DNA from: Nostoc linckia FACHB-104
GTDB taxonomy: Bacteria; Cyanobacteriota; Cyanobacteriia; Cyanobacteriales; Nostocaceae
NCBI RefSeq assembly: GCF_014696615.1
Contig: NZ_JACJQJ010000024.1
Span: forward strand, 1-64,000
Direction: 5' to 3'
DNA: 64,000 bases
Part shown: positions 54,994-64,000 of the stretch, piece after piece
Layout: each line of letters opens with the position of its first letter
Numbering within the stretch: position 1 is the stretch's first letter
Notes under the pieces: generated by a model
The model's input: only the letters and a program-made list of their open reading frames with translations
The model's database searches: none
Told to the model about the DNA's origin: nothing
Program-made: the position numbers and the translations under genes

Positions 54994-55668
54994 CTAATAC
55001 TCTTGCTTAAATAATCCCAATAAGGGAGCGAGAATTATGCCAAATACAAAGCCTCCGATGTGTGCCCAGTAAGCAACTCCGCCTGTCTCAACACTCATAT
55101 TAGCTGCTGTTTGTAGGCTAACAAAACCAGAAAGTAGATTCTGGACAATGAACAGCCCTATCAGTATCATTGCTGGAACTCTAATAGTGGTGACGAAAAA
55201 TCCTAAAAAGGCTAAAGTCATGACCCTAGCGTGTGGGAAACGGATAATATACGCACCTAAAACTCCAGAGATGGCACCACTTGCACCCAAAGAAGGAATC
55301 CCAGAATTCATGCCAATAAACCATTGACATAAAGCAGCTAAAGCACCGCAAGTTAAATAAAAAATTAGATATTTGACATGACCTAGACGGTCTTCGATAT
55401 TGTTACCAAATATCCAAAGAAACACCATATTCGAGATTAAATGCCACCAACCACCGTGTAAGAATTGCGATGTAAAAAGCGTTGTCCACTCTGAAGAAAA
55501 GTTGGTGGTTAATTCTCGTGGTACTACTGCATATAGTTGAAAAAATTGCTCTAGTTGTGCATTAGATAAACTCACTTCATGAAGAAAAACTAAAACGTTC
55601 ATCCCAATCAGCCCATAAGTTAAGTATGGGGTGATGCGCGTCGGATTTTCGTCGTAAAGGGGAAACAC
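54994..55668 (-). CDS. Rhomboid-family intramembrane serine protease (copy 1)
   Basis: 224 aa, GTG start at 55668. Six or so membrane helices. Catalytic serine in GASGAISGVLGAY (S130) and histidine in YWAHIGGFVFG (H203); HxxxN-type HLISNMVFLWIFGNN in TM2 (H76, N80) stabilises the oxyanion hole. Cleaves membrane proteins within the bilayer; substrate unknown. A tandem paralogue lies 216 bp upstream on the same strand. Confidence 0.94.
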   Translation of the reverse strand: MFPLYDENPTRITPYLTYGLIGMNVLVFLHEVSLSNAQLEQFFQLYAVVPRELTTNFSSEWTTLFTSQFLHGGWWHLISNMVFLWIFGNNIEDRLGHVKYLIFYLTCGALAALCQWFIGMNSGIPSLGASGAISGVLGAYIIRFPHARVMTLAFLGFFVTTIRVPAMILIGLFIVQNLLSGFVSLQTAANMSVETGGVAYWAHIGGFVFGIILAPLLGLFKQEY

Positions 55669-55884: not shown

Positions 55885-56607
55885 TCATCCCCAATTCTTA
55901 TAGGGTGTTCGGGGTTTGTCGCTAAATAATCCTAAGATGGGGCCGAGAATTGCGCCAAATAGGAAACCACCAGCGTGCGCCCAGTACGCTATACCACCGT
56001 TTTCCATACCGATGTTGGTGGGTGTTTCGAGGCTAGCAACGCCGTAAAAAGCTTGTTGAATGAACCAGAACCCTAAAAAGAAGTATGCTGGGACTCGGAA
56101 AGTGGGGAAGAAAAACCCTAAAGGTATAACACCGAGAATTTCGGCTGTGGGAAAGCGAAGAATATATGCTCCCATCACACCTGCGATCGCACCACTCGCC
56201 CCTAAAGATGGAATATTAGAATTTTGTGAAAAGTACCACTGGCTTAATGATGCCAAAATTCCGCAAGATAAATAAAATAGCAGATATTTAAAATGACCTA
56301 ATTTATCTTCGACATTGTTTCCAAAAATCCAGAGGAATAACATATTACCCGCGAGGTGTAATAAACCACCGTGCAAAAATTGTGAGGTAATTAAAGTAGC
56401 CCACTCTGGTACAGGTTGATGTACAGATATCCCAGCAAAACTTAAAGTCAGTTCTTTTGGAACTACCGCAGCCAAGTGTAAAAACCCATCTAAGGCTTGG
56501 GGAGGAAGACTAGCTTCATAAAGAAAAGCTAGGACATTGGCAGCAATTAGCCCAAAGGTAACATAAGGTGTAATTTCTGTAGGATTATTATCTCTAATTG
56601 GAACCAC
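55885..56607 (-). CDS. Rhomboid-family intramembrane serine protease (copy 2)
   Basis: 240 aa, GTG start at 56607 with GAGGA upstream. GASGAIAGVMGAY gives S138, YWAHAGGFLFG gives H211, HLAGNMLFLWIFGNNVEDKL G the TM2 motif. Clearly homologous to the next gene along its length, with a somewhat longer loop 1 (SFAGISVHQPVPEW). Both copies keep all catalytic residues, so this is not a decayed duplicate. Confidence 0.94.
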   Translation of the reverse strand: MVPIRDNNPTEITPYVTFGLIAANVLAFLYEASLPPQALDGFLHLAAVVPKELTLSFAGISVHQPVPEWATLITSQFLHGGLLHLAGNMLFLWIFGNNVEDKLGHFKYLLFYLSCGILASLSQWYFSQNSNIPSLGASGAIAGVMGAYILRFPTAEILGVIPLGFFFPTFRVPAYFFLGFWFIQQAFYGVASLETPTNIGMENGGIAYWAHAGGFLFGAILGPILGLFSDKPRTPYKNWG

Positions 56608-56805: not shown

Positions 56806-58149
56806 TCACATAATTTTCCCAGCTTTGTTTAATTCCCGCTTGATAGCGTCAAGTATATCCTCATGATGAATTACTACATCGCCTCGCTGGAGTGCCTGTA
56901 AACAGCAATGCTGTACTATATTCAAGATATCAGAGCCAGTTAATTCATAAGCAGCTGAAAGCTTTGGTAAATCTACAGATTCAGCTAGCTTAATTTGGGA
57001 TGGAAAAGCCATTTGCCAAAGTTGAGATCGCTCTTTGATATTGGGCATAGGAAATTGAATAATCGATTGAAAACGACGAATAAAAGCTTCGTCAATATTG
57101 CTTTTTAAGTTGGAAGACAATATAACTAATCCATCGTAGTTTTCTATCCGTTGCAGTAAGTAACTTACCTCTTGGTTAGCATATTTATCATGTGCATCAC
57201 GCACATTAGTACGTTTACCAAATAACGCATCAGCTTCATCAAAAAACAAAATCCAATCTTTACTTTCAGCGCGCGCGAACAAGTTAGCTAGGTTCTTTTC
57301 TGTTTCACCGATAAATTTTGATACCACCATAGAAATGTCTATCTTATAGACATCTTTACCTGTGTATTTTCCTAAAAGACTGGCTGTGAGGGTTTTACCT
57401 GTACCAGGGGGGCCATAGAAAAGCGCTCGGTAGCCGAGTTTGAGCTTCTTTTTCATGTTCCAGTCATAAAGAATGGTTCGGCTATGAGTAATCCAAGCTT
57501 CTAGCTCATGAATCTGTTGTAAGGTTTGAGCATTTAGAACTAAATCTTCCCATTCCATTTCAGTAGTGATGCGTTGAGCCGGAAAGTTAATACTGAAATG
57601 AGGACGAGAAAAGCGCCCTTGGGTGAATAATTCGACGTAATCTTGAAGCATAACTAGCTTACCACTCATCAGAGGTTCGCCTTCAGCAGGTGAATCGAGA
57701 TAGATGACGCGATCGCGTGCAAAGGGATGCTCTTCGCTGAAAATTTGCTGTAAATGCAGCCGTTCCGCAAAGCGATCGCCTCCCAGCATGAACAGTACTG
57801 TTTCACCTGTAGGTAAAAAACCCCGATGCGCCTTACCCCGCCAGCCACCAATTTGAGGATAATCCCCAGCTTGGGGTAAGTTAGCTGTAATCAGCCGATC
57901 AAAAAAATCGGGTTGCAAATGCGGTGCGATCGCCATCAGTAAGGTTAATTGCTCCGCAGTATCTAATTTATGTTTGCGAATAAAGATAGTTAAGGGCGTT
58001 TCATTACTTAGCCATTCATCTGGCAAATTAGGCATTGGTGCTTTTACTGGCTCATTACTGCTGAAGTGGTAGTCCATGCGCCACTGGATTACCTTAGCCA
58101 GGTGATTAAGGCCATTTTCTAGGGTTTGAACATTAAGCAACTGCGTCAT
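56806..58149 (-). CDS. eCIS-associated AAA+ ATPase (Afp15-like)
   Basis: 447 aa. N-terminal region of the contractile-injection ATPase type: LTLLMAIAPHLQPDFFDRLI, YPQIGGWRGKAHRGFLPTGE TVLFMLGGD, and FSINFPAQRITTEMEWEDLV. AAA+ core: Walker A GPPGTGKT (246-253), Walker B ILFFDEAD (300-307), SSNLKSNIDEAFIRRFQSII with arginine finger. In eCIS loci (Afp, PVC, tCIS) this ATPase helps assembly or cargo loading. It is the strongest evidence, with the DUF4157 protein, for an eCIS island. The N-terminal domain distinguishes it from general AAA proteases. Confidence 0.92.
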   Translation of the reverse strand: MTQLLNVQTLENGLNHLAKVIQWRMDYHFSSNEPVKAPMPNLPDEWLSNETPLTIFIRKHKLDTAEQLTLLMAIAPHLQPDFFDRLITANLPQAGDYPQIGGWRGKAHRGFLPTGETVLFMLGGDRFAERLHLQQIFSEEHPFARDRVIYLDSPAEGEPLMSGKLVMLQDYVELFTQGRFSRPHFSINFPAQRITTEMEWEDLVLNAQTLQQIHELEAWITHSRTILYDWNMKKKLKLGYRALFYGPPGTGKTLTASLLGKYTGKDVYKIDISMVVSKFIGETEKNLANLFARAESKDWILFFDEADALFGKRTNVRDAHDKYANQEVSYLLQRIENYDGLVILSSNLKSNIDEAFIRRFQSIIQFPMPNIKERSQLWQMAFPSQIKLAESVDLPKLSAAYELTGSDILNIVQHCCLQALQRGDVVIHHEDILDAIKRELNKAGKIM

Positions 58150-58689
58150 ACTGTACAGATTAGAGAACTACCCTATCGCGATCGCGAGGGGTTAGGAGCA
58201 TAAAAATATTGTTGACTGTTGACCGGGAAGAGATTTCCCCGCCATTACTGTGTAATTTATGAAATAAATTTCTTGATTGATATTTGGAGATGGATGCAGA
58301 AGATTGCTGGATTGAGACGAGCACGGTATGAGTAAATCCACTTAGCCTTCTTTCACATTAGACGTATTTTGGCACTTGCGGAGGTAAAGATTCTTAAAAA
58401 GACTTGCTCAGATATTGAGTTTTTAATTTATATATCAATTTTATTTCTGAGAATGTCATCCCATAATAAATTAGACATGATTGCAAAATAAAAGGCAAAA
58501 TCACTCAAACTTTAGCTCGTCGTAGTACAATTTCAGCTTCAGAGTTTACAAAACTAGACATAATTCTCTTTAAATTAGCTGCAAACATTAGTTTTTCCTG
58601 ATGCTGCCAACCAAGCATATCTATTTTTGCTAATCAATCGAAACGTACATTGAGTTTAGTGCTATTAAACTAAGAGGTTGACTAAATTT
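58150..58689. other. 540-bp divergent spacer upstream of the AAA+ gene
   Basis: AT-rich; carries GTTGACTGTTGACCGGGAAGA (58211-58231), also at 42082. CTAAGAGG just before 58690 is the ribosome binding site of the next gene. No conserved operator seen. Confidence 0.45.
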
Positions 58690-59205
58690 ATGCCAGAAAC
58701 AGAAATTCAACAAATTCAAACACCATTGAGTAGCCTTCCAGTTTTATATACAAGAGATGCTGCTCAACCTATACAGTACAATCCTTTTCAAGAAATCACC
58801 CAATTATTCCAAACTCTTTTTGAAGAAGATACTTCATCTGTTTACCAAAAAGCCGGGGAAAAAACCTGGAAGATTTTTAAGCAAATAATTACTGTTGTTA
58901 CCTTTTTATTTCTTTTACTATGTGCCCTAATTGTTTGGGTATGGGGTATTGGGTTTAAAAGTGGTGTTCATTTTCGGACTTGGATAGAAACGAAAAACCC
59001 GACAATTGATGAACTCATAGTTGCGATTCTGAAAATTATTTTATGGCCTTTAGAGCGGACATTTGAGTGGGCTAATTCATTCATTAAAGACTTATTTGGC
59101 TGGGAAATTAAATTCGACGAGTTGAAAACAGAACCAACTTCTACTCCAGCAGCAGGTGAAGCAACTCCCTCATCTGCATCATCCCAGAGTTCACAACCCA
59201 GTTAG
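58690..59205 (+). CDS. Membrane protein of the eCIS island (unknown family)
   Basis: 171 aa from ATG 58690 (MPETEIQQIQTPLSSLPVLY), AGAGG 12 bp upstream. One strong membrane helix, IITVVTFLFLLLCALIVWVW, and an amphipathic segment ILKIILWPLERTFEWANSFI, then a Ser/Pro/Thr-rich tail (EPTSTPAAGEATPSSASSQS). The only plus-strand gene in the island. I do not recognise the family. Cyanobacterial CIS are known to be thylakoid-anchored, so an anchor role is a possible but unproven reading. Confidence 0.75.
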   Translation: MPETEIQQIQTPLSSLPVLYTRDAAQPIQYNPFQEITQLFQTLFEEDTSSVYQKAGEKTWKIFKQIITVVTFLFLLLCALIVWVWGIGFKSGVHFRTWIETKNPTIDELIVAILKIILWPLERTFEWANSFIKDLFGWEIKFDELKTEPTSTPAAGEATPSSASSQSSQPS

Positions 59206-59367
59206 AGGTTATTTATTAATGTAGTTTCCCAACTTGGAAAAACTGGCGTTATGTTACGGCTATGAAACATTGGAAGGTTAGAGACAATAGGAATTAGCCG
59301 TAACAAGAATTCGCCAAAACAAAACAACAGATTCAATTTCGTAATTATAAATTACCAATCTTTTTAC

Positions 59368-59508
59368 TCATGATGAAACTGGATTGGCATCTTTTTCTGA
59401 TTTTTTATTAGCAGAATTAGTAATCTCACCAATACCATAGCTCATGAATCCGATAATGAATGCTAAAAAGAAGGGAAAAGCGAGAAACCAAAACAATGAT
59501 TCCAACAT
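59368..59508 (-). CDS. 46-residue single-membrane-helix peptide
   Basis: MLESLFWFLAFPFFLAFIIG then FMSYGIGEITNSANKKSEKD and ANPVSS-stop. GTGAGGT lies 6-7 bp before the ATG, a good ribosome binding site. A short helix-rich hydrophobic N-terminus with a charged tail is typical of small membrane proteins. It lies in a gap left by larger gene calls, between the membrane protein and the Q-rich peptide. Family unknown. Confidence 0.6.
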   Translation of the reverse strand: MLESLFWFLAFPFFLAFIIGFMSYGIGEITNSANKKSEKDANPVSS

Positions 59509-59635
59509 AAAATACCTCACCGAAGTATATATAATTTCAAATTGGATATTATTTAAACTCTAAAATTTGTTGCTTGACTAAATTATCTGCATAGTCCCTC
59601 TAAAGATATTTTAATTGTGAATTAATTAAATTTGT

Positions 59636-59839
59636 TTACACTTCCTCTTTTTGAGGTTCTTCCTGTCTTTGAATTTGGGAGTTTAGCGTATCTTCTTGGC
59701 GCTGCGCGATCGCCTGCGACGAAGTAGCCTGAGTGCTAGAGAAAAAATGACTTCCATGACTTCCTTGTTGTTTAAAGAAAGATTCATGGTTTTCTTGAGA
59801 AGGTGCTTTATGGGGGCGTTGGAATTGGAAGGCTGCCAT
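59636..59839 (-). CDS. Small Gln-rich protein before the YbjN gene
   Basis: 67 aa, MAAFQFQRPHKAPSQENHES, ... SSQAIAQRQEDTLNSQIQRQ EEPQKEEV. Disordered, Gln/Ser/His rich. QRQEE stretches are also common in the disordered N-terminal segments of DUF4157 proteins, suggesting a relation to this island. No motif or family. Downstream of the YbjN gene by 90 bp, same strand. Confidence 0.5.
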   Translation of the reverse strand: MAAFQFQRPHKAPSQENHESFFKQQGSHGSHFFSSTQATSSQAIAQRQEDTLNSQIQRQEEPQKEEV

Positions 59840-59929
59840 AATTAGGATGATTTTATTTAAGGTAAATGAGAATGTTTCAGTAGAGCGAAGTCTAGTTGAG
59901 CCTGATGCTACACCTGAATATACTTCTTA

Positions 59930-61030
59930 TTAATCGCTTTTTTCGGTTTCTTCATCAGAATTATTTTCCACAAGCGCGATCGCATCCGTGGGCGATAGTT
60001 TCCCTTCAATCACAGCCATAATACCTGGTAAATATTGATCTATGGTGACGACATTGGCATACACTAGGCGTTTAATCAAAGTTGAGGTAATGCGATCACC
60101 TTCAACATCAATGCTAGTTTTGTACATAATTTCACCGCTGCTAAAGTTGAGTTCAAAGTTACCAATGACGATACCGTTGTTGGCGTGGGTAATGAATTCT
60201 GCGATCGCCAATCTTTGCGACTCTGGGGCGACAGTCGGACAAATAGAATAAAAAGCGAACTGTTGGGGCGATTCATTAGCTCTAGCGTAACAAAGCCATT
60301 GTCCGTTTTGCCCTTGGTAACCCATTTGCAGAATTGGTTTACCCTGGATTTTGGTAAATGTCCAATCATCGTTGGTGAAAAACGCGATCATGGCGTTGGT
60401 GATTGGATGTTCATCAATTGGATTGCGATCGCCTGGTTGAAATAAGTTCGTGAAATCGCTGAAAATTTCTTGAAAAAAATTGTCCGAGGCTTTAGTAAGT
60501 TCGGTTTCTGTAAGATTGGTGAGGAATTGACTTAGAGATTGGGTAAGTTCCTCTTCATTGATAGTTCCAGCCGCCAGTTTGCTGGGATTCAGGGTTGCCC
60601 ACAGAGTAGTGTAGCCTACTTCACCTTGAAAAGCAGAAAGCGCAAACCAGTTATCTAGGTTCACAAGGGGATGTTCGGGTTGGGTTTCGCTGAGTTCTTT
60701 TAGATACTGAAGCGCAGTTTCCGGAGTTGTATTTTCCGGGATATCAGGAAAGCGATCAGGGTGCAGGGTAGCTTTCAAGGTAATCTCAGAGTTGGGCGAG
60801 AAAGTGACAGATTGATTGCACAACTCTGCTTTGAGATTCAAGAGACTGTTTTTCTCTATTGTTTGATAAATTTCTAGAGGTAGTTGGCAAGTTAAACAGC
60901 ACTCAGTCAACTTGCTGTCTTGGTGGGTAAGTGAAAGAATAGCTTGCTTGAAAATAGAAGGTGCGATCGCTACTGATGTTAAAGCCTCTTGTTCAAGGTG
61001 AGTTTGATCCTGCATTTGTTGGCTTTTCAC
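59930..61030 (-). CDS. YbjN-domain protein (TY-chaperone-like) of the eCIS island
   Basis: 366 aa from GTG 61030; ATG at 61015 is an alternative. N-terminal ~200 residues: unfamiliar acidic domain (IFKQAILSLTHQDSKLTECC LTC...; FALSAFQGEVGYTTLWATLN). From about 215 the YbjN pattern: DDWTFTKIQGKPILQMGYQG QNGQWLCYARANESPQQFAF YSICP, ANNGIVIGNFELNFSSGEIM YKTSIDVEGDRI and VYANVVTIDQYLPGIMAVIE. YbjN has the fold of type III secretion chaperones (Tir/YbjN group). Its position directly after the DUF4157 gene suggests a chaperone or immunity partner; inference. Confidence 0.8.
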   Translation of the reverse strand: MKSQQMQDQTHLEQEALTSVAIAPSIFKQAILSLTHQDSKLTECCLTCQLPLEIYQTIEKNSLLNLKAELCNQSVTFSPNSEITLKATLHPDRFPDIPENTTPETALQYLKELSETQPEHPLVNLDNWFALSAFQGEVGYTTLWATLNPSKLAAGTINEEELTQSLSQFLTNLTETELTKASDNFFQEIFSDFTNLFQPGDRNPIDEHPITNAMIAFFTNDDWTFTKIQGKPILQMGYQGQNGQWLCYARANESPQQFAFYSICPTVAPESQRLAIAEFITHANNGIVIGNFELNFSSGEIMYKTSIDVEGDRITSTLIKRLVYANVVTIDQYLPGIMAVIEGKLSPTDAIALVENNSDEETEKSD

Positions 61031-61138
61031 AAATTTAGTGAGATTACAGATTTTTTTATAACTATGCTTATTCGGATTCGAGCCATAGGTATTTTTAAGC
61101 TCAATTATTTCTTCTTTAAATCCATAATAGACCGTTAA

Positions 61139-64000
61139 TCAAATACCTGGACTTCCGGCTCGTCTCACTGCTCCTACTAATAAAGCTCTGATCTGTTGTA
61201 GAGTATTTTTACCCTGATTAATCTGTCCTGCCATTTCGGGTTTTTCTTTAAGCATTTGTGTCACAGCATCTGGATCAATAGCAGAATCAGTCCATTTTCC
61301 AATAATTAATTGAAGATGCAAGGAGGTTGTGCCTAAAATTCTATCTGCTTGTTCTATTTCATCTTTTGTTCTTGCATCTCGCCTAAACTTAATGGCCAAA
61401 ATAAATTGCCTTAGTGTATATAGAAGTTCCTGTTTAGTACTGCCATGAATACGAGAGTTCTGATCCCCATTAGGAGATGGAGAATCTTTATCTTTGTCTA
61501 CGGTCAGCTCAAACACAGGATTGGATAGTAAATTCTTTAAAGAGCTAACAGATACAATTAAAACTCGTCCTTCAGATAAATTACTAATTTCTTCTATCTC
61601 TGATAACCAGTCAGATACTGATTGCTTAATACTATTATTGAAGACATGATCTTTTCTCTTAAATCCTGATGATTTACTAGCGCTACCCTTATGTTTACCG
61701 CTGCTAGCAATATATTGATATTCCCAATTATTTCCTCCATCTACTACTGTTATTGATTTAAAGATAGGATGTTTTGATTTGATAGTTGTTGCGACTTTTT
61801 CTGCATCTTGTCGTTCTATTTTCCCATCTTTTAAATATTTTTGCTCTTCTTGATCAATTTCATCTAAACCTGCTTCAACCTTCTTGTCGTGCTCTGGATC
61901 GGTTACTCCTGCTTCACCTTCTTTATCTTTGCCAATTCCAAATAGACTCTTGACTTTATCTACAATAAAATTCGCTAGCTTGGTAATCGCGTTCCAAACT
62001 TTATCTTGGATGCTCTTAATTGTCTTTTGGATGGGTTCAGCAACGTTACCTAAACCAATGAAGCGCGCCAAGAAACCGAGCATTACTGGAATTGCCCTTG
62101 CCATTGATTGTTCTACAAAGTTGGCAGCAGTACCGATCGCACCTGCGGCGATGCTACCAATTGATTTAGTCACGGCTGTTACCAGCATGGCAATTTGCTG
62201 CGCCCGTTCCATGAAGAAGGCGACGGTGTTGTAGACAGAAATAATTGCCTGAATTACGGCTCCCGCTGGGTTGAACATACTGATCAACTTGGTAATGGCG
62301 GCTGTGACAATTCTGCTCTTCACCCAATCTTGAATTGCCCCAATTACCATATCTTTGAGAGAACCGATGAATTCCACTAGTTTCTCCCAAGCTGCTGCTA
62401 GCCCTTTAGTAGCAATGGTTACTAAGAAATCAAAGACTTTCTCAATTCTGGCTACTGCTTTTTCACCAATCAAACCTACCAGTACGCCACGCAAACGGGT
62501 ATAAGTTGCACCCAATACTTGTAGTACTAGAGAGACAATGCTTTCCATGTCAAATTTTTGGGGTAAAGCAATTCCCGCACTGGCTAACGCTCCAAATAGC
62601 CAGCCCATTAACCCCGCTTTTAAGTGTGTTGTAATATTGCTAGAAAACTGCTGGAATCCTTGCTTGACTGATTTAATCAGGTTACCTGCAAAAGCAATGG
62701 GATTCTGAATAATTTGAGAAAAGACATTACCCGCTTGCTTGACTGCGCCCACGATCGCACCAGCAAAGGGCCCGGCAAGTCTGAGTACGCCTTCAAACAC
62801 GAATTCTAGTACTTTCTTGCCAACTGCGATCGCAAATTCTCCAATGCGTTTAATTGGCGGCCCGAAGATGTTCTGAATCTTCTCAAAAGCTTTCAACGGG
62901 CTAGTAATATCGTTAATTGACAGCGCATTCCAGATTTGGCTAAATAGTGCTTTAATTCCTTCCCAAGTAAGGTTGAGGCGTTTAATTTCTTGTTCTAGCC
63001 AAGTAGTGGCGCGATCAATAGCACCGGATTCCTGTAAGTTCTTAAAGGTTTCTTTGCCACCGGGAACTAGTTCTAGAAAACCACCAATAAAGTTGGTTGC
63101 ATTGCGTTCTACCGCATCGCCTGTAACTGGGTCTTTACCCAGAATCACTGTCAACAGTTTATAACCTGGAACTTTTTCTTTGACGAATTGACCAACAGGT
63201 TTAATAATTGCTTCTTTAATGAATTCTATGACTTTGCTAACCACAGACGCGGCAAAGTTCATAATCCGCTGCACAGTTGGGCCAAAGATACCGCGAATTT
63301 TGGCAAAAGCTCCCTCAAATCCATCCCAAACACTGACTTCATCCCAAGCGCGGCTAAACAGAGCTTTGATGCCATCCCAGGTAATGTTAAGTTGTTGTAC
63401 TTGGGCATTTAACCAAGCAAAAGCGCGATCGAGAACACCTGTTTCTTGTAGGGTTTTAAATATCAAATCTCCGCCGGGAACTAGTCCCATCAAACCACGC
63501 ACGAGATTGACAGCACTGCGTTCAACTGGTCTGTTACTAATGGGGTTACGTCCCAATAGCACCGTTAATAGTGTAAAGCCGGGAATATTGGCGGCTTTAT
63601 CTGCCACCCAATTGAGAATCGTATCCAGTCCCAACTTCTGCACTTGGGGAGGCACAGTACTAATGGCTAATGGTTTACGCTGGGCGTAACTTGGCTCAGT
63701 AGTTAAAGACACTCCCGATTTAGCATTGAATGTATTTTCCTGCGCTACAGTTTGGTGTGGCTGTACTGTGGTGGGAGATGCAGTAGGCGGTGGTTGTTGC
63801 TGAACTGTATGAGTTAATTCATGAGCTAATAGCCATTTACCCTGACTACTTTGGGGGTCATAGCGTCCGGCATTAAAGAAGATATCTTTTTTAATGGTGA
63901 AAGCCTCAGCATTCAATTCTCTGGCAGCTTTGTTAGCACTGGCATCTTTGTGAATGCGTACATCCCCTAAGTTGTAGCCAAAACGTGACTCGAAGAATCC
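61139..64000 (-). CDS. Giant DUF4157 (eCIS-core) protein, N-terminus beyond window
   Basis: At least 953 residues, open to the window edge. At the edge: GFFESRFGYNLGDVRIHKDA, LNAEAFTIKKDIFFNAGRYD and the zinc-protease-like LLAHELTHTVQQ (near 63815), the eCIS-core/DUF4157 signature. A Thr/Pro/Gln linker follows. Two homologous ~110-residue blocks: PGFTLLTVLLGRNP...LNIT WDGIKALFSRAW and PGYKLLTVILGKDP...LNLT WEGIKALFSQIW. A long amphipathic helical stretch ends at about 61950, then a soluble C-terminal part (KYLKDGKIERQDAEKVATTI ... VVDGGNNWEYQYIASSGKHK). Likely an injected or structural cargo; the C-terminal domain is not recognised as a known toxin. Confidence 0.9.
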   Translation of the reverse strand, partial: GFFESRFGYNLGDVRIHKDASANKAARELNAEAFTIKKDIFFNAGRYDPQSSQGKWLLAHELTHTVQQQPPPTASPTTVQPHQTVAQENTFNAKSGVSLTTEPSYAQRKPLAISTVPPQVQKLGLDTILNWVADKAANIPGFTLLTVLLGRNPISNRPVERSAVNLVRGLMGLVPGGDLIFKTLQETGVLDRAFAWLNAQVQQLNITWDGIKALFSRAWDEVSVWDGFEGAFAKIRGIFGPTVQRIMNFAASVVSKVIEFIKEAIIKPVGQFVKEKVPGYKLLTVILGKDPVTGDAVERNATNFIGGFLELVPGGKETFKNLQESGAIDRATTWLEQEIKRLNLTWEGIKALFSQIWNALSINDITSPLKAFEKIQNIFGPPIKRIGEFAIAVGKKVLEFVFEGVLRLAGPFAGAIVGAVKQAGNVFSQIIQNPIAFAGNLIKSVKQGFQQFSSNITTHLKAGLMGWLFGALASAGIALPQKFDMESIVSLVLQVLGATYTRLRGVLVGLIGEKAVARIEKVFDFLVTIATKGLAAAWEKLVEFIGSLKDMVIGAIQDWVKSRIVTAAITKLISMFNPAGAVIQAIISVYNTVAFFMERAQQIAMLVTAVTKSIGSIAAGAIGTAANFVEQSMARAIPVMLGFLARFIGLGNVAEPIQKTIKSIQDKVWNAITKLANFIVDKVKSLFGIGKDKEGEAGVTDPEHDKKVEAGLDEIDQEEQKYLKDGKIERQDAEKVATTIKSKHPIFKSITVVDGGNNWEYQYIASSGKHKGSASKSSGFKRKDHVFNNSIKQSVSDWLSEIEEISNLSEGRVLIVSVSSLKNLLSNPVFELTVDKDKDSPSPNGDQNSRIHGSTKQELLYTLRQFILAIKFRRDARTKDEIEQADRILGTTSLHLQLIIGKWTDSAIDPDAVTQMLKEKPEMAGQINQGKNTLQQIRALLVGAVRRAGSPGI

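What the first reader, a model, noticed from the sequence alone, without database searches (positions are those of the whole stretch)
56806..64000. Edge of a cyanobacterial contractile-injection (eCIS) island with unusual accessory genes
An Afp15-like AAA+ ATPase and a very large DUF4157 eCIS-core protein bracket a membrane protein, a 46-aa membrane peptide, a Q-rich peptide and a YbjN-domain protein. Cyanobacterial CIS of this kind are known to be thylakoid-anchored. None of the small proteins has a recognised function, so the accessory set may be undescribed. Tube, sheath and baseplate genes are not in the window.
Basis: partly seen in the sequence, partly recalled or inferred. Interest (0 to 1): 0.75.

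Follow-up and report, generated by a model that had tools for sequence, protein, structure and literature searches.

The report
Accessory genes of thylakoid injection machine
The window ends inside a complete gene cluster for a phage-tail-like injection machine of the thylakoid-anchored type, and its unexplained small genes look like a chaperone for the injected proteins plus a membrane-protein pair that may dock the machine to the membrane, which can be tested.

Summary
Confirmed and extended. Past position 64000 the contig carries a full contractile injection system (CIS), by its parts the thylakoid type: Cis13 with its membrane helix, Cis12 and crown Cis19 match Anabaena All3316, All3315 and All3314. 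The flagged stretch is its effector and accessory end. (1) The AAA+ protein is a short, single-AAA Cis15. (2) The YbjN protein is a two-domain family whose predicted model matches type III secretion chaperones; DUF4157 or CIS genes lie nearby in 31 of 43 fetched loci, against 0 of 20 control stretches. (3) The Q-rich peptide is the leader remnant of a small DUF4157 protein. (4) The membrane protein (TM175) matches no known family: its close form occurs in exactly the 15 of 217 genomes that have the membrane-anchored Cis13; 11 of 12 distant forms lie in other CIS loci; one relative whose Cis13 is a fibre without a membrane helix lacks it. (5) The 46-aa peptide is its conserved neighbour in many of these loci. 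The roles of 2, 4 and 5 are inferred; I found no description of them in the library searched.

The parts
56806..58149 (-). Short Cis15-type AAA+ ATPase, 447 aa: weak N-terminal winged-helix match plus one AAA domain; probable effector loader (inferred)
   Evidence: Pfam AAA E 2.3e-27, WHD 21.6 bits under its cut-off of 27, one AAA stretch; orthologues of at least 76% identity in 14 of 217 family genomes
58690..59205 (+). TM175: single-helix membrane protein (171 aa from the ATG), candidate membrane-docking factor (inferred)
   Evidence: Close form in the same 15 of 217 genomes as TM-Cis13; 11 of 12 distant forms in other CIS loci; no Pfam or PHROGs family at a credible E-value
59368..59508 (-). 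TM46: 46-aa single-helix peptide, convergent neighbour of TM175
   Evidence: Profile hits only in CIS loci that carry TM175: 14 hits in 119 stretches, 0 in 20 control and 52 YbjN stretches; dN/dS 0.10 from 12 changes
59636..59839 (-). Q-rich 67-aa peptide: leader remnant of a small DUF4157 protein
   Evidence: Orthologue in same-genus genome G216 is the N-terminal part of a 282-aa DUF4157 protein, 0 of 2000 shuffles as good
59930..61030 (-). Two-domain YbjN protein, probable effector chaperone (inferred)
   Evidence: Pfam YbjN; gene context; predicted model and fold search
61139..64000 (-). 3' part of the 1186-aa DUF4157/eCIS_core protein, effector-type; the gene starts at contig position 64699
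   Evidence: Pfam eCIS_core; full ORF; dN/dS 0.44, the highest of 13 genes compared

Best explanation
This is the effector-loading and membrane end of a complete thylakoid-type CIS. Shown by sequence: the structural genes, the membrane-helix Cis13, Cis12 and Cis19, and the conserved linkage of the accessory genes. Inferred mechanism: the two DUF4157 proteins are cargo with hydrophilic N-terminal leaders. The two-domain YbjN protein binds the giant cargo as a dedicated chaperone, as class I type III secretion chaperones do. The short AAA+ Cis15 recognises the leader and threads the cargo into the tube. TM175, in some lineages with TM46, sits in the membrane and docks or licenses the particle there, working together with the Cis13 membrane helix and the Cis12 extension, much as CisA is proposed to do in Streptomyces. 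The Q-rich peptide is what is left of a third, small DUF4157 protein.
For: tCIS identity: Cis13 62% identical to All3316 over 151 residues including the helix, Cis12 matched 1-1347 to 1-1335 of All3315 in one stretch, Cis19, sheath. TM175: close form in 15 of 217 genomes, the identical set to TM-Cis13; beside Cis15 in 14 of 14 genomes that have the close Cis15, 13 divergent and 1 tandem; a 16th TM-Cis13 genome (RU_5_1) holds two distant copies on other contigs; FACHB-63, whose Cis13 domain is part of a 736-aa open frame without a membrane helix, has no TM175 at E<=1; G309, with related Cis11/12/19/14 but no Cis13 match, has none above noise. 11 of 12 distant TM175 in the family lie in other CIS loci; 0 of 20 control stretches hold a CIS structural gene or DUF4157. 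TM46: 14 profile hits in 119 scanned stretches, all in TM175-bearing CIS loci. YbjN: DUF4157 upstream on the same strand in 26 of 43, DUF4157 or a CIS structural gene in 31 of 43, 35 of 43 if four effector bodies cut at the stretch edge, 1.5-7.4 kb away, are counted; fold search hits YbjN proteins and chaperone-effector complexes at probability 0.99-1.00.
Against: No experiment. Genes of one cluster co-occur by shared inheritance, and 7 of the 15 genomes are one genus, so co-occurrence does not prove a joint function. TM175 relatives without CIS genes in the fetched stretch: 10 of 10 loci from family f10 and G173 (some stretches short) and G300, so the family is not confined to CIS. TM46 was not found in the stretches fetched of ten other tCIS loci. 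Weiss et al. explain anchoring by Cis13 and Cis12, and the passages that I read name neither an ATPase nor such a membrane protein in their 15-gene cluster. Many DUF4157 genes have no YbjN neighbour: of 14 stretches L232-L251 with DUF4157 only 3 had a YbjN match. Short YbjN proteins are mostly not by CIS (2 of 9). Best Foldseek E-value is only 9.4e-4 and the model's pTM is 0.49. That Cis15 loads cargo rests on Pvc15, which has a different domain make-up.
Confidence: 0.55

Rival explanations
1. TM175 and TM46 are a holin-like or lysis pair that permeabilises a membrane so that particles or ghost cells become exposed.
For: Small proteins with mostly one helix, usually a convergent pair; Weiss et al. 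[quoted passage not shown] one weak i-spanin hit for a relative, E 0.024.
Against: No lysis family at a credible E-value; no endolysin recognised by eye among the larger ORFs around the cluster (not searched by profile); TM175 is absent in FACHB-63, which keeps the injector genes but not the Cis13 membrane helix.
Confidence: 0.17
2. TM175 tethers the Cis15 loader or protects the producer from its own effector, and has nothing to do with docking.
For: TM175 lies beside Cis15 in 14 of 14 close genomes.
Against: FACHB-63 keeps a 76% identical Cis15 and DUF4157 genes without TM175; in the distant loci TM175 is kept although it is not next to the AAA gene and the DUF4157 proteins differ.
Confidence: 0.15
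3. The two-domain YbjN protein is a stress regulator or stabiliser of other proteins, as proposed for AmyR, and sits in CIS loci by chance or as a regulator of them.
For: YbjN proteins elsewhere act on stress and virulence genes (AmyR passages); 12 of 43 two-domain loci showed no DUF4157 or CIS gene in the stretch at first count, 8 of 43; many DUF4157 genes lack it.
Against: DUF4157 is upstream on the same strand in 26 of 43 against 0 of 20 control stretches with DUF4157; no DNA-binding domain found by Pfam.
Confidence: 0.2
4. Ordinary extracellular CIS whose accessory genes are lineage-specific passengers.
For: Accessory content varies between loci; TM46 and the Q-rich peptide were seen in few of the tCIS loci.
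Against: TM-Cis13, Cis12 and Cis19 as in the thylakoid type; purifying selection; recurrence of TM175 and TM46 in other CIS loci.
Confidence: 0.08

Closest known systems
Thylakoid-anchored CIS of Anabaena sp. PCC 7120 (all3313-all3327; PDB 7B5H)
   Same: Cis13 with C-terminal membrane helix, Cis12 along its full length, Cis19 crown, sheath
   Different: The published cluster is 15 genes plus two DUF4157 genes; the passages read mention no ATPase, YbjN, TM175 or TM46 gene. Cis19 here is 1975 aa against 1476.
Pvc15/Afp15 ATPase
   Same: AAA+ protein of a CIS locus, next to effector-type genes
   Different: Pvc15 has N, D1 and D2 domains, 698 residues (PMC11495950 passages); here one AAA domain and 447 aa
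YbjN family (E. coli YbjN, AmyR, DR1245) and class I type III secretion chaperones
   Same: YbjN Pfam match in 35 of 38 aligned members; C-terminal fold
   Different: Extra ~200-aa N-terminal domain without a consistent Pfam match; beside CIS effector genes, whereas the AmyR authors found no effector genes beside ybjN
CisA of Streptomyces coelicolor
   Same: Membrane protein encoded with a CIS, not shown to be part of the particle, candidate adaptor to the membrane (PMC12237407 passages)
   Different: TM175 is 171 aa without CisA's large cytosolic part and C-terminal domain; gene beside Cis15, not beside the baseplate genes; no sequence comparison was made

Membership tests
Thylakoid-type CIS (tCIS) | Complete CIS structural set | tested here: met
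   By Pfam or PDB: cap, sheath, tube, CIS_tube/LysM, spike, PAAR, gp25, Cis12, Cis13, Cis19, tape measure. By place or resemblance only: second tube, 399-aa, 62-aa and Cis11 proteins
Thylakoid-type CIS (tCIS) | Cis13 with C-terminal membrane helix | tested here: met
   62% identity to All3316 including the helix; hydropathy 2.08 at 135-153
Thylakoid-type CIS (tCIS) | Cis12 extension (aa 610-1100 of All3315) | tested here: met
   One match stretch 1-1347 to 1-1335; not read residue by residue
Thylakoid-type CIS (tCIS) | Cis19 crown protein | tested here: met
   Match to All3314, E 0
Thylakoid-type CIS (tCIS) | Particles anchored in thylakoid membranes | not testable with these tools
   Needs cryo-tomography
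[quoted passage not shown]
   One AAA stretch, 447 aa; Pvc15 layout read
DUF4157 (eCIS_core) effector | eCIS_core domain behind a hydrophilic leader, near the 3' end of a CIS cluster | tested here: met
   Pfam eCIS_core in both proteins; leaders and position; loading or toxicity not tested
YbjN (PF10722) | Profile match above the curated cut-off | tested here: met
   24.8 bits against 22; 35 of 38 members at E<=0.01
[quoted passage not shown]
   Foldseek probability 1.00 to HopA1-SchA, ExsC-ExsE, SicP-SptP and VecA-VepA, TMt 0.53-0.77, E 2.0e-3 to 2.6e-2; predicted model only
[quoted passage not shown]
   The neighbours are CIS genes; binding needs an experiment. So: works like, not a member.
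CisA membrane adaptor | Large cytosolic N-terminus, one helix, periplasmic C-terminal domain, gene beside baseplate genes | tested here: not met
   171 aa, gene beside Cis15; CisA description from passages
Holin/lysis pair | Match to a lysis family | tested here: not met
   only an i-spanin hit at E 0.024 for one relative

The most novel reading that the evidence does not exclude
TM175 is the unidentified membrane protein through which cyanobacterial CIS dock, with TM46 as its partner in several lineages. The same docking module is kept in CIS loci that lack the thylakoid Cis13, so membrane-docked CIS would be common in cyanobacteria rather than an Anabaena speciality. In the same group of organisms, two-domain YbjN proteins are the first dedicated chaperones of CIS effectors, which would give YbjN proteins the secretion role suspected from their fold.
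Probability: 0.33. Interest if true: 0.8.

Novelty: new variant of a known kind. Interest (0 to 1): 0.66.

Why it matters
Weiss et al. [quoted passage not shown] TM175 is a conserved candidate that tracks the membrane-anchored Cis13 genome by genome, so that question becomes a gene deletion. The YbjN result gives a second test: the fold looks like a secretion chaperone, but the AmyR authors saw no effector gene beside ybjN genes; here effector-type genes are beside it. Both bear on how these injectors are loaded and where they fire.

Tried and rejected
Rejected: 'orphan toxin without a CIS' (structural genes found). Rejected: Q-rich peptide as an independent gene family (it is the leader of a DUF4157 protein in G216; its similarity to the leaders of the two neighbouring effectors is weak, 200 and 25 of 2000 shuffles scored as well). 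Rejected: finding Q-rich or TM46 relatives by single-sequence genome search (beyond the own genome best E 0.013 and 0.003). Rejected: TM175 as strictly CIS-bound (10 of 10 fetched f10 and G173 loci and G300 show no CIS genes). No plasmid hit for TM175 or Cis13. A PDB profile search with the YbjN alignment found only one designed protein at E 0.028; Foldseek with the model found the fold.

Led nowhere: the TM175 structure job never entered the queue; the VIA-align library was absent. Supplementary tables of Weiss et al. and of the eCIS surveys could not be read. I did not recognise Anabaena PCC 7120 among the genomes, so whether it has TM175 and Cis15 is open.

Limits of the counts: the YbjN stretches are 52 of the places listed (mostly the best-scoring ones), each up to 19.5 kb, some cut by contig ends. 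The comparison of DUF4157 proteins with a YbjN gene downstream (21 of 35 share the helical body of the 1186-aa protein) and without (4 of 31) was sampled through YbjN and TM175 loci and is biased. TM46 relatives were first picked by eye from hydrophobic ORFs beside TM175, then seven were made into a profile; of the 14 hits, those that are neither a seed nor a near copy of one are L299 (E 1.5e-9) and L239 (E 5e-4, about 2 kb from TM175). The 20 control stretches were taken at round coordinates of long contigs. Genomes reached by G handles are not all independent of the named loci (G215 and G196, for example, have the same coordinates); the 16 TM-Cis13 genomes are the 15 plus RU_5_1.
Full report
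WHAT IS THERE. The window is the first 64000 bases of a 113,953-base contig of a 9.39 Mb genome. By Cis13 its nearest named relatives are Calothrix membranacea FACHB-236 (99%) and Nostoc carneum NIES-2107 (96%). All six features of the finding are present. Past 64000 the contig holds on the same strand, in order of transcription: a Pvc16_N cap protein, a 399-aa protein, sheath, two tube proteins, a 62-aa Cis6-like protein, a CIS_tube/LysM protein, spike, PAAR, gp25, Cis11 (1230 aa), Cis13 (162 aa), Cis12 (1349 aa), Cis19 (1975 aa), the CIS tape-measure protein (687 aa), a 261-aa DUF4157 protein and the 1186-aa DUF4157 protein that reaches into the window. That is 15 structural genes, of which the second tube, 399-aa, 62-aa and Cis11 proteins are named by place and resemblance only, then two effector-type genes.

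WHICH KIND. Weiss et al. (PMC8894136; outline and passages read) describe thylakoid-anchored CIS with a Cis13 that has a membrane helix, an extended Cis12 and the Cis19 crown. Here Cis13 matches All3316 including the helix (E 1.7e-59, 62% identity), Cis12 matches All3315 from end to end, Cis19 matches All3314 and the sheath matches All3325. It is a thylakoid-type CIS by parts; the location was not tested. In 217 genomes of the family, Cis13 of this kind is found in 15; in a draw of 195 genomes of the order only the own genome matched a single-sequence search.

THE MEMBRANE PROTEIN (TM175). In 19 of 24 aligned relatives hydropathy shows one helix; the other five show one or two further weaker segments. 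No Pfam or PHROGs family claims it at a credible E-value. A profile of five orthologues finds it in 27 of 217 family genomes. Fifteen matches are strong (E 4.8e-54 or better), and these 15 genomes are exactly the 15 with TM-Cis13. The short Cis15 (76% identity or more) is in 14 of them and TM175 lies beside it each time, 13 times divergent and once in tandem; in the 15th, G232, no such Cis15 was found and TM175 lies near a contig end. The twelve weaker matches (E 3.5e-25 to 1.7e-5) were all fetched: 11 lie in other CIS loci with DUF4157; ten of these also show sheath, tube, spike or gp25 genes (not L243) and eight a longer AAA protein; one (G300, L237) shows nothing of a CIS. None of 20 control stretches held a CIS structural gene or DUF4157; two held other AAA proteins. 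In the order, a 24-sequence profile matched 13 of 195 genomes. Apart from the own genome all 12 contexts were fetched: G048 and G024 are in CIS loci; the nine f10 genomes and G173 show no CIS genes in the stretches (10 of 10; L118 is only 3.6 kb).

A NATURAL EXPERIMENT. 'Cyanobacteria bacterium FACHB-63' has the same kind of Cis15 (76% identity), Cis11, Cis12 and Cis19, but its Cis13 N-terminal domain continues into a 736-aa open frame without a membrane helix that ends with a Peptidase_S74 fibre domain. Its genome has no TM175 match even at E<=1. G309, whose Cis11/12/19/14 are related but which has no Cis13 match, and G214, a same-genus genome without this system, have only noise. The Leptolyngbyaceae MAG RU_5_1 has a TM-Cis13 and distant TM175 copies (E 2.4e-20 and 1.5e-15). 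So in these genomes TM175 follows the membrane-anchored Cis13 rather than Cis15 or the effectors. This rests on one genome with a fibre-type Cis13; shared inheritance of one cluster explains part of the rest, and seven of the 15 genomes are one genus.

THE 46-AA PEPTIDE (TM46). In eight of the eleven distant CIS loci with TM175, and in G048, an ORF of 30-61 aa with one helix lies 30-134 bp from the 3' end of TM175 on the other strand, sharing AFxxG inside the helix; in the own, G220 and N. carneum tCIS loci the distances are 167, 170 and 822 bp. A profile from seven of these finds 14 hits among 119 stretches, all in CIS loci with TM175, none in the 20 control or 52 YbjN stretches. One hit (L299, E 1.5e-9) is from another family and was not used to build the profile; there the pair is in tandem. 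In tCIS loci TM46 was seen in four (own, N. carneum, G216, G220) and not in the stretches of ten others; the FACHB-236 contig ends too early to tell.

THE YBJN PROTEIN. It has a ~200-aa N-terminal domain and a C-terminal YbjN domain. Members occur in 51 of 195 genomes of the order. I fetched 52 stretches around places from that list. Of 43 with an ORF of at least 330 aa, 26 have a DUF4157 gene upstream on the same strand (3 of these stretches also one downstream), and 31 have DUF4157 or a CIS structural gene. Four more hold, 1.5-7.4 kb away and cut at the stretch edge, a protein alike to the body of the 1186-aa effector (L133, L134, L169, L170), making 35 of 43. Of nine short ones, 2 do. Against this, of 14 TM175/AAA stretches (L232-L251) with DUF4157 only 3 had a YbjN match. 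A named example is Oscillatoria nigro-viridis PCC 7112 plasmid pOSC7112.04, with DUF4157, YbjN, gp25 and baseplate genes within 12 kb, four other genes lying between the DUF4157 and YbjN genes. The predicted model (38 sequences, mean pLDDT 81.3, pTM 0.49) matches DR1245, E. coli YbjN, AmyR and many type III secretion chaperones, several solved with their effectors, at Foldseek probability 0.97-1.00 (best E 9.4e-4). The AmyR authors (PMC5398634; passages) saw the chaperone fold but argued against a secretion role, in part because ybjN genes do not lie beside effector genes. In these CIS loci they do. A dedicated effector chaperone is my reading; binding is not shown.

THE AAA PROTEIN AND THE Q-RICH PEPTIDE. 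Pvc15 loads cargo by its N-terminal signal peptide and has N, D1 and D2 domains (PMC11495950; passages); effector leaders are hydrophilic and disordered (PMC11297309; passages). The protein here is shorter, with one AAA domain, while the 667- and 682-aa AAA proteins of two other loci of the same genome keep a clear winged-helix domain and a long middle part. The Q-rich peptide matches the first part of a 282-aa DUF4157 protein in same-genus genome G216, lacking an internal stretch and the core; in FACHB-63 a 262-aa DUF4157 protein sits at the same place between YbjN and Cis15. Its dN/dS of 0.22 rests on 12 changes, so a leader-only role cannot be excluded. The 1186-aa effector has the highest dN/dS (0.44) of the 13 genes compared.

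IN PRINT. Searches of the held library found no paper with both 'YbjN' and 'contractile injection'. 'Membrane adaptor' with 'contractile injection' gives only the CisA paper. The tCIS and cyanobacteria searches and the DUF4157 search were seen as listings; a five-term search listed ten papers, none with 'contractile injection'; the ten of 37 papers listed by a chaperone search likewise. Passages read in four CIS papers do not mention these proteins; supplementary tables could not be read. Preprints and most subscription journals are not held, so absence from print is not shown.

VERDICT. A new member of a known machine with accessory parts for which I found no description. The machine identity is near certain; the chaperone role is likely; the docking role of TM175/TM46 is the bolder and directly testable part.

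Noticed in passing
G000:C120 (L309) and G000:C106 (L310): Two further loci with CIS-type AAA proteins (682 and 667 aa); L309 also has a Tail_P2_I protein and, by eye, leader-type proteins, so the genome probably holds at least one more CIS.
   Followed up: partly
L002:7904-13831: Cis19 is 1975 aa against 1476 aa in Anabaena; the extra length looks by eye like tandem Ig-like repeats.
   Followed up: no
L091:9920-12127 (FACHB-63): Cis13 N-terminal domain in one open frame with a long fibre ending in Peptidase_S74 instead of a membrane helix: anchor and fibre appear exchangeable.
   Followed up: yes
window 54994-55668 and 55885-56607: Two tandem rhomboid-family membrane proteins directly downstream of the AAA gene (Pfam Rhomboid); link with the CIS unknown.
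   Followed up: partly
L115, L116, L118-L122, L300-L302: TM175 relatives in nine f10 genomes and G173 without CIS genes in the fetched stretches; function unknown.
   Followed up: partly
genome G101: Fifteen YbjN-family matches in one 6.6 Mb genome; open frames of 600-980 aa around some matches in this and other genomes suggest fusions.
   Followed up: no
L003:17784-18291: Overlapping ORFs made of PHYPFPITHSPLP-like repeats, probably a short tandem DNA repeat rather than a gene.
   Followed up: no
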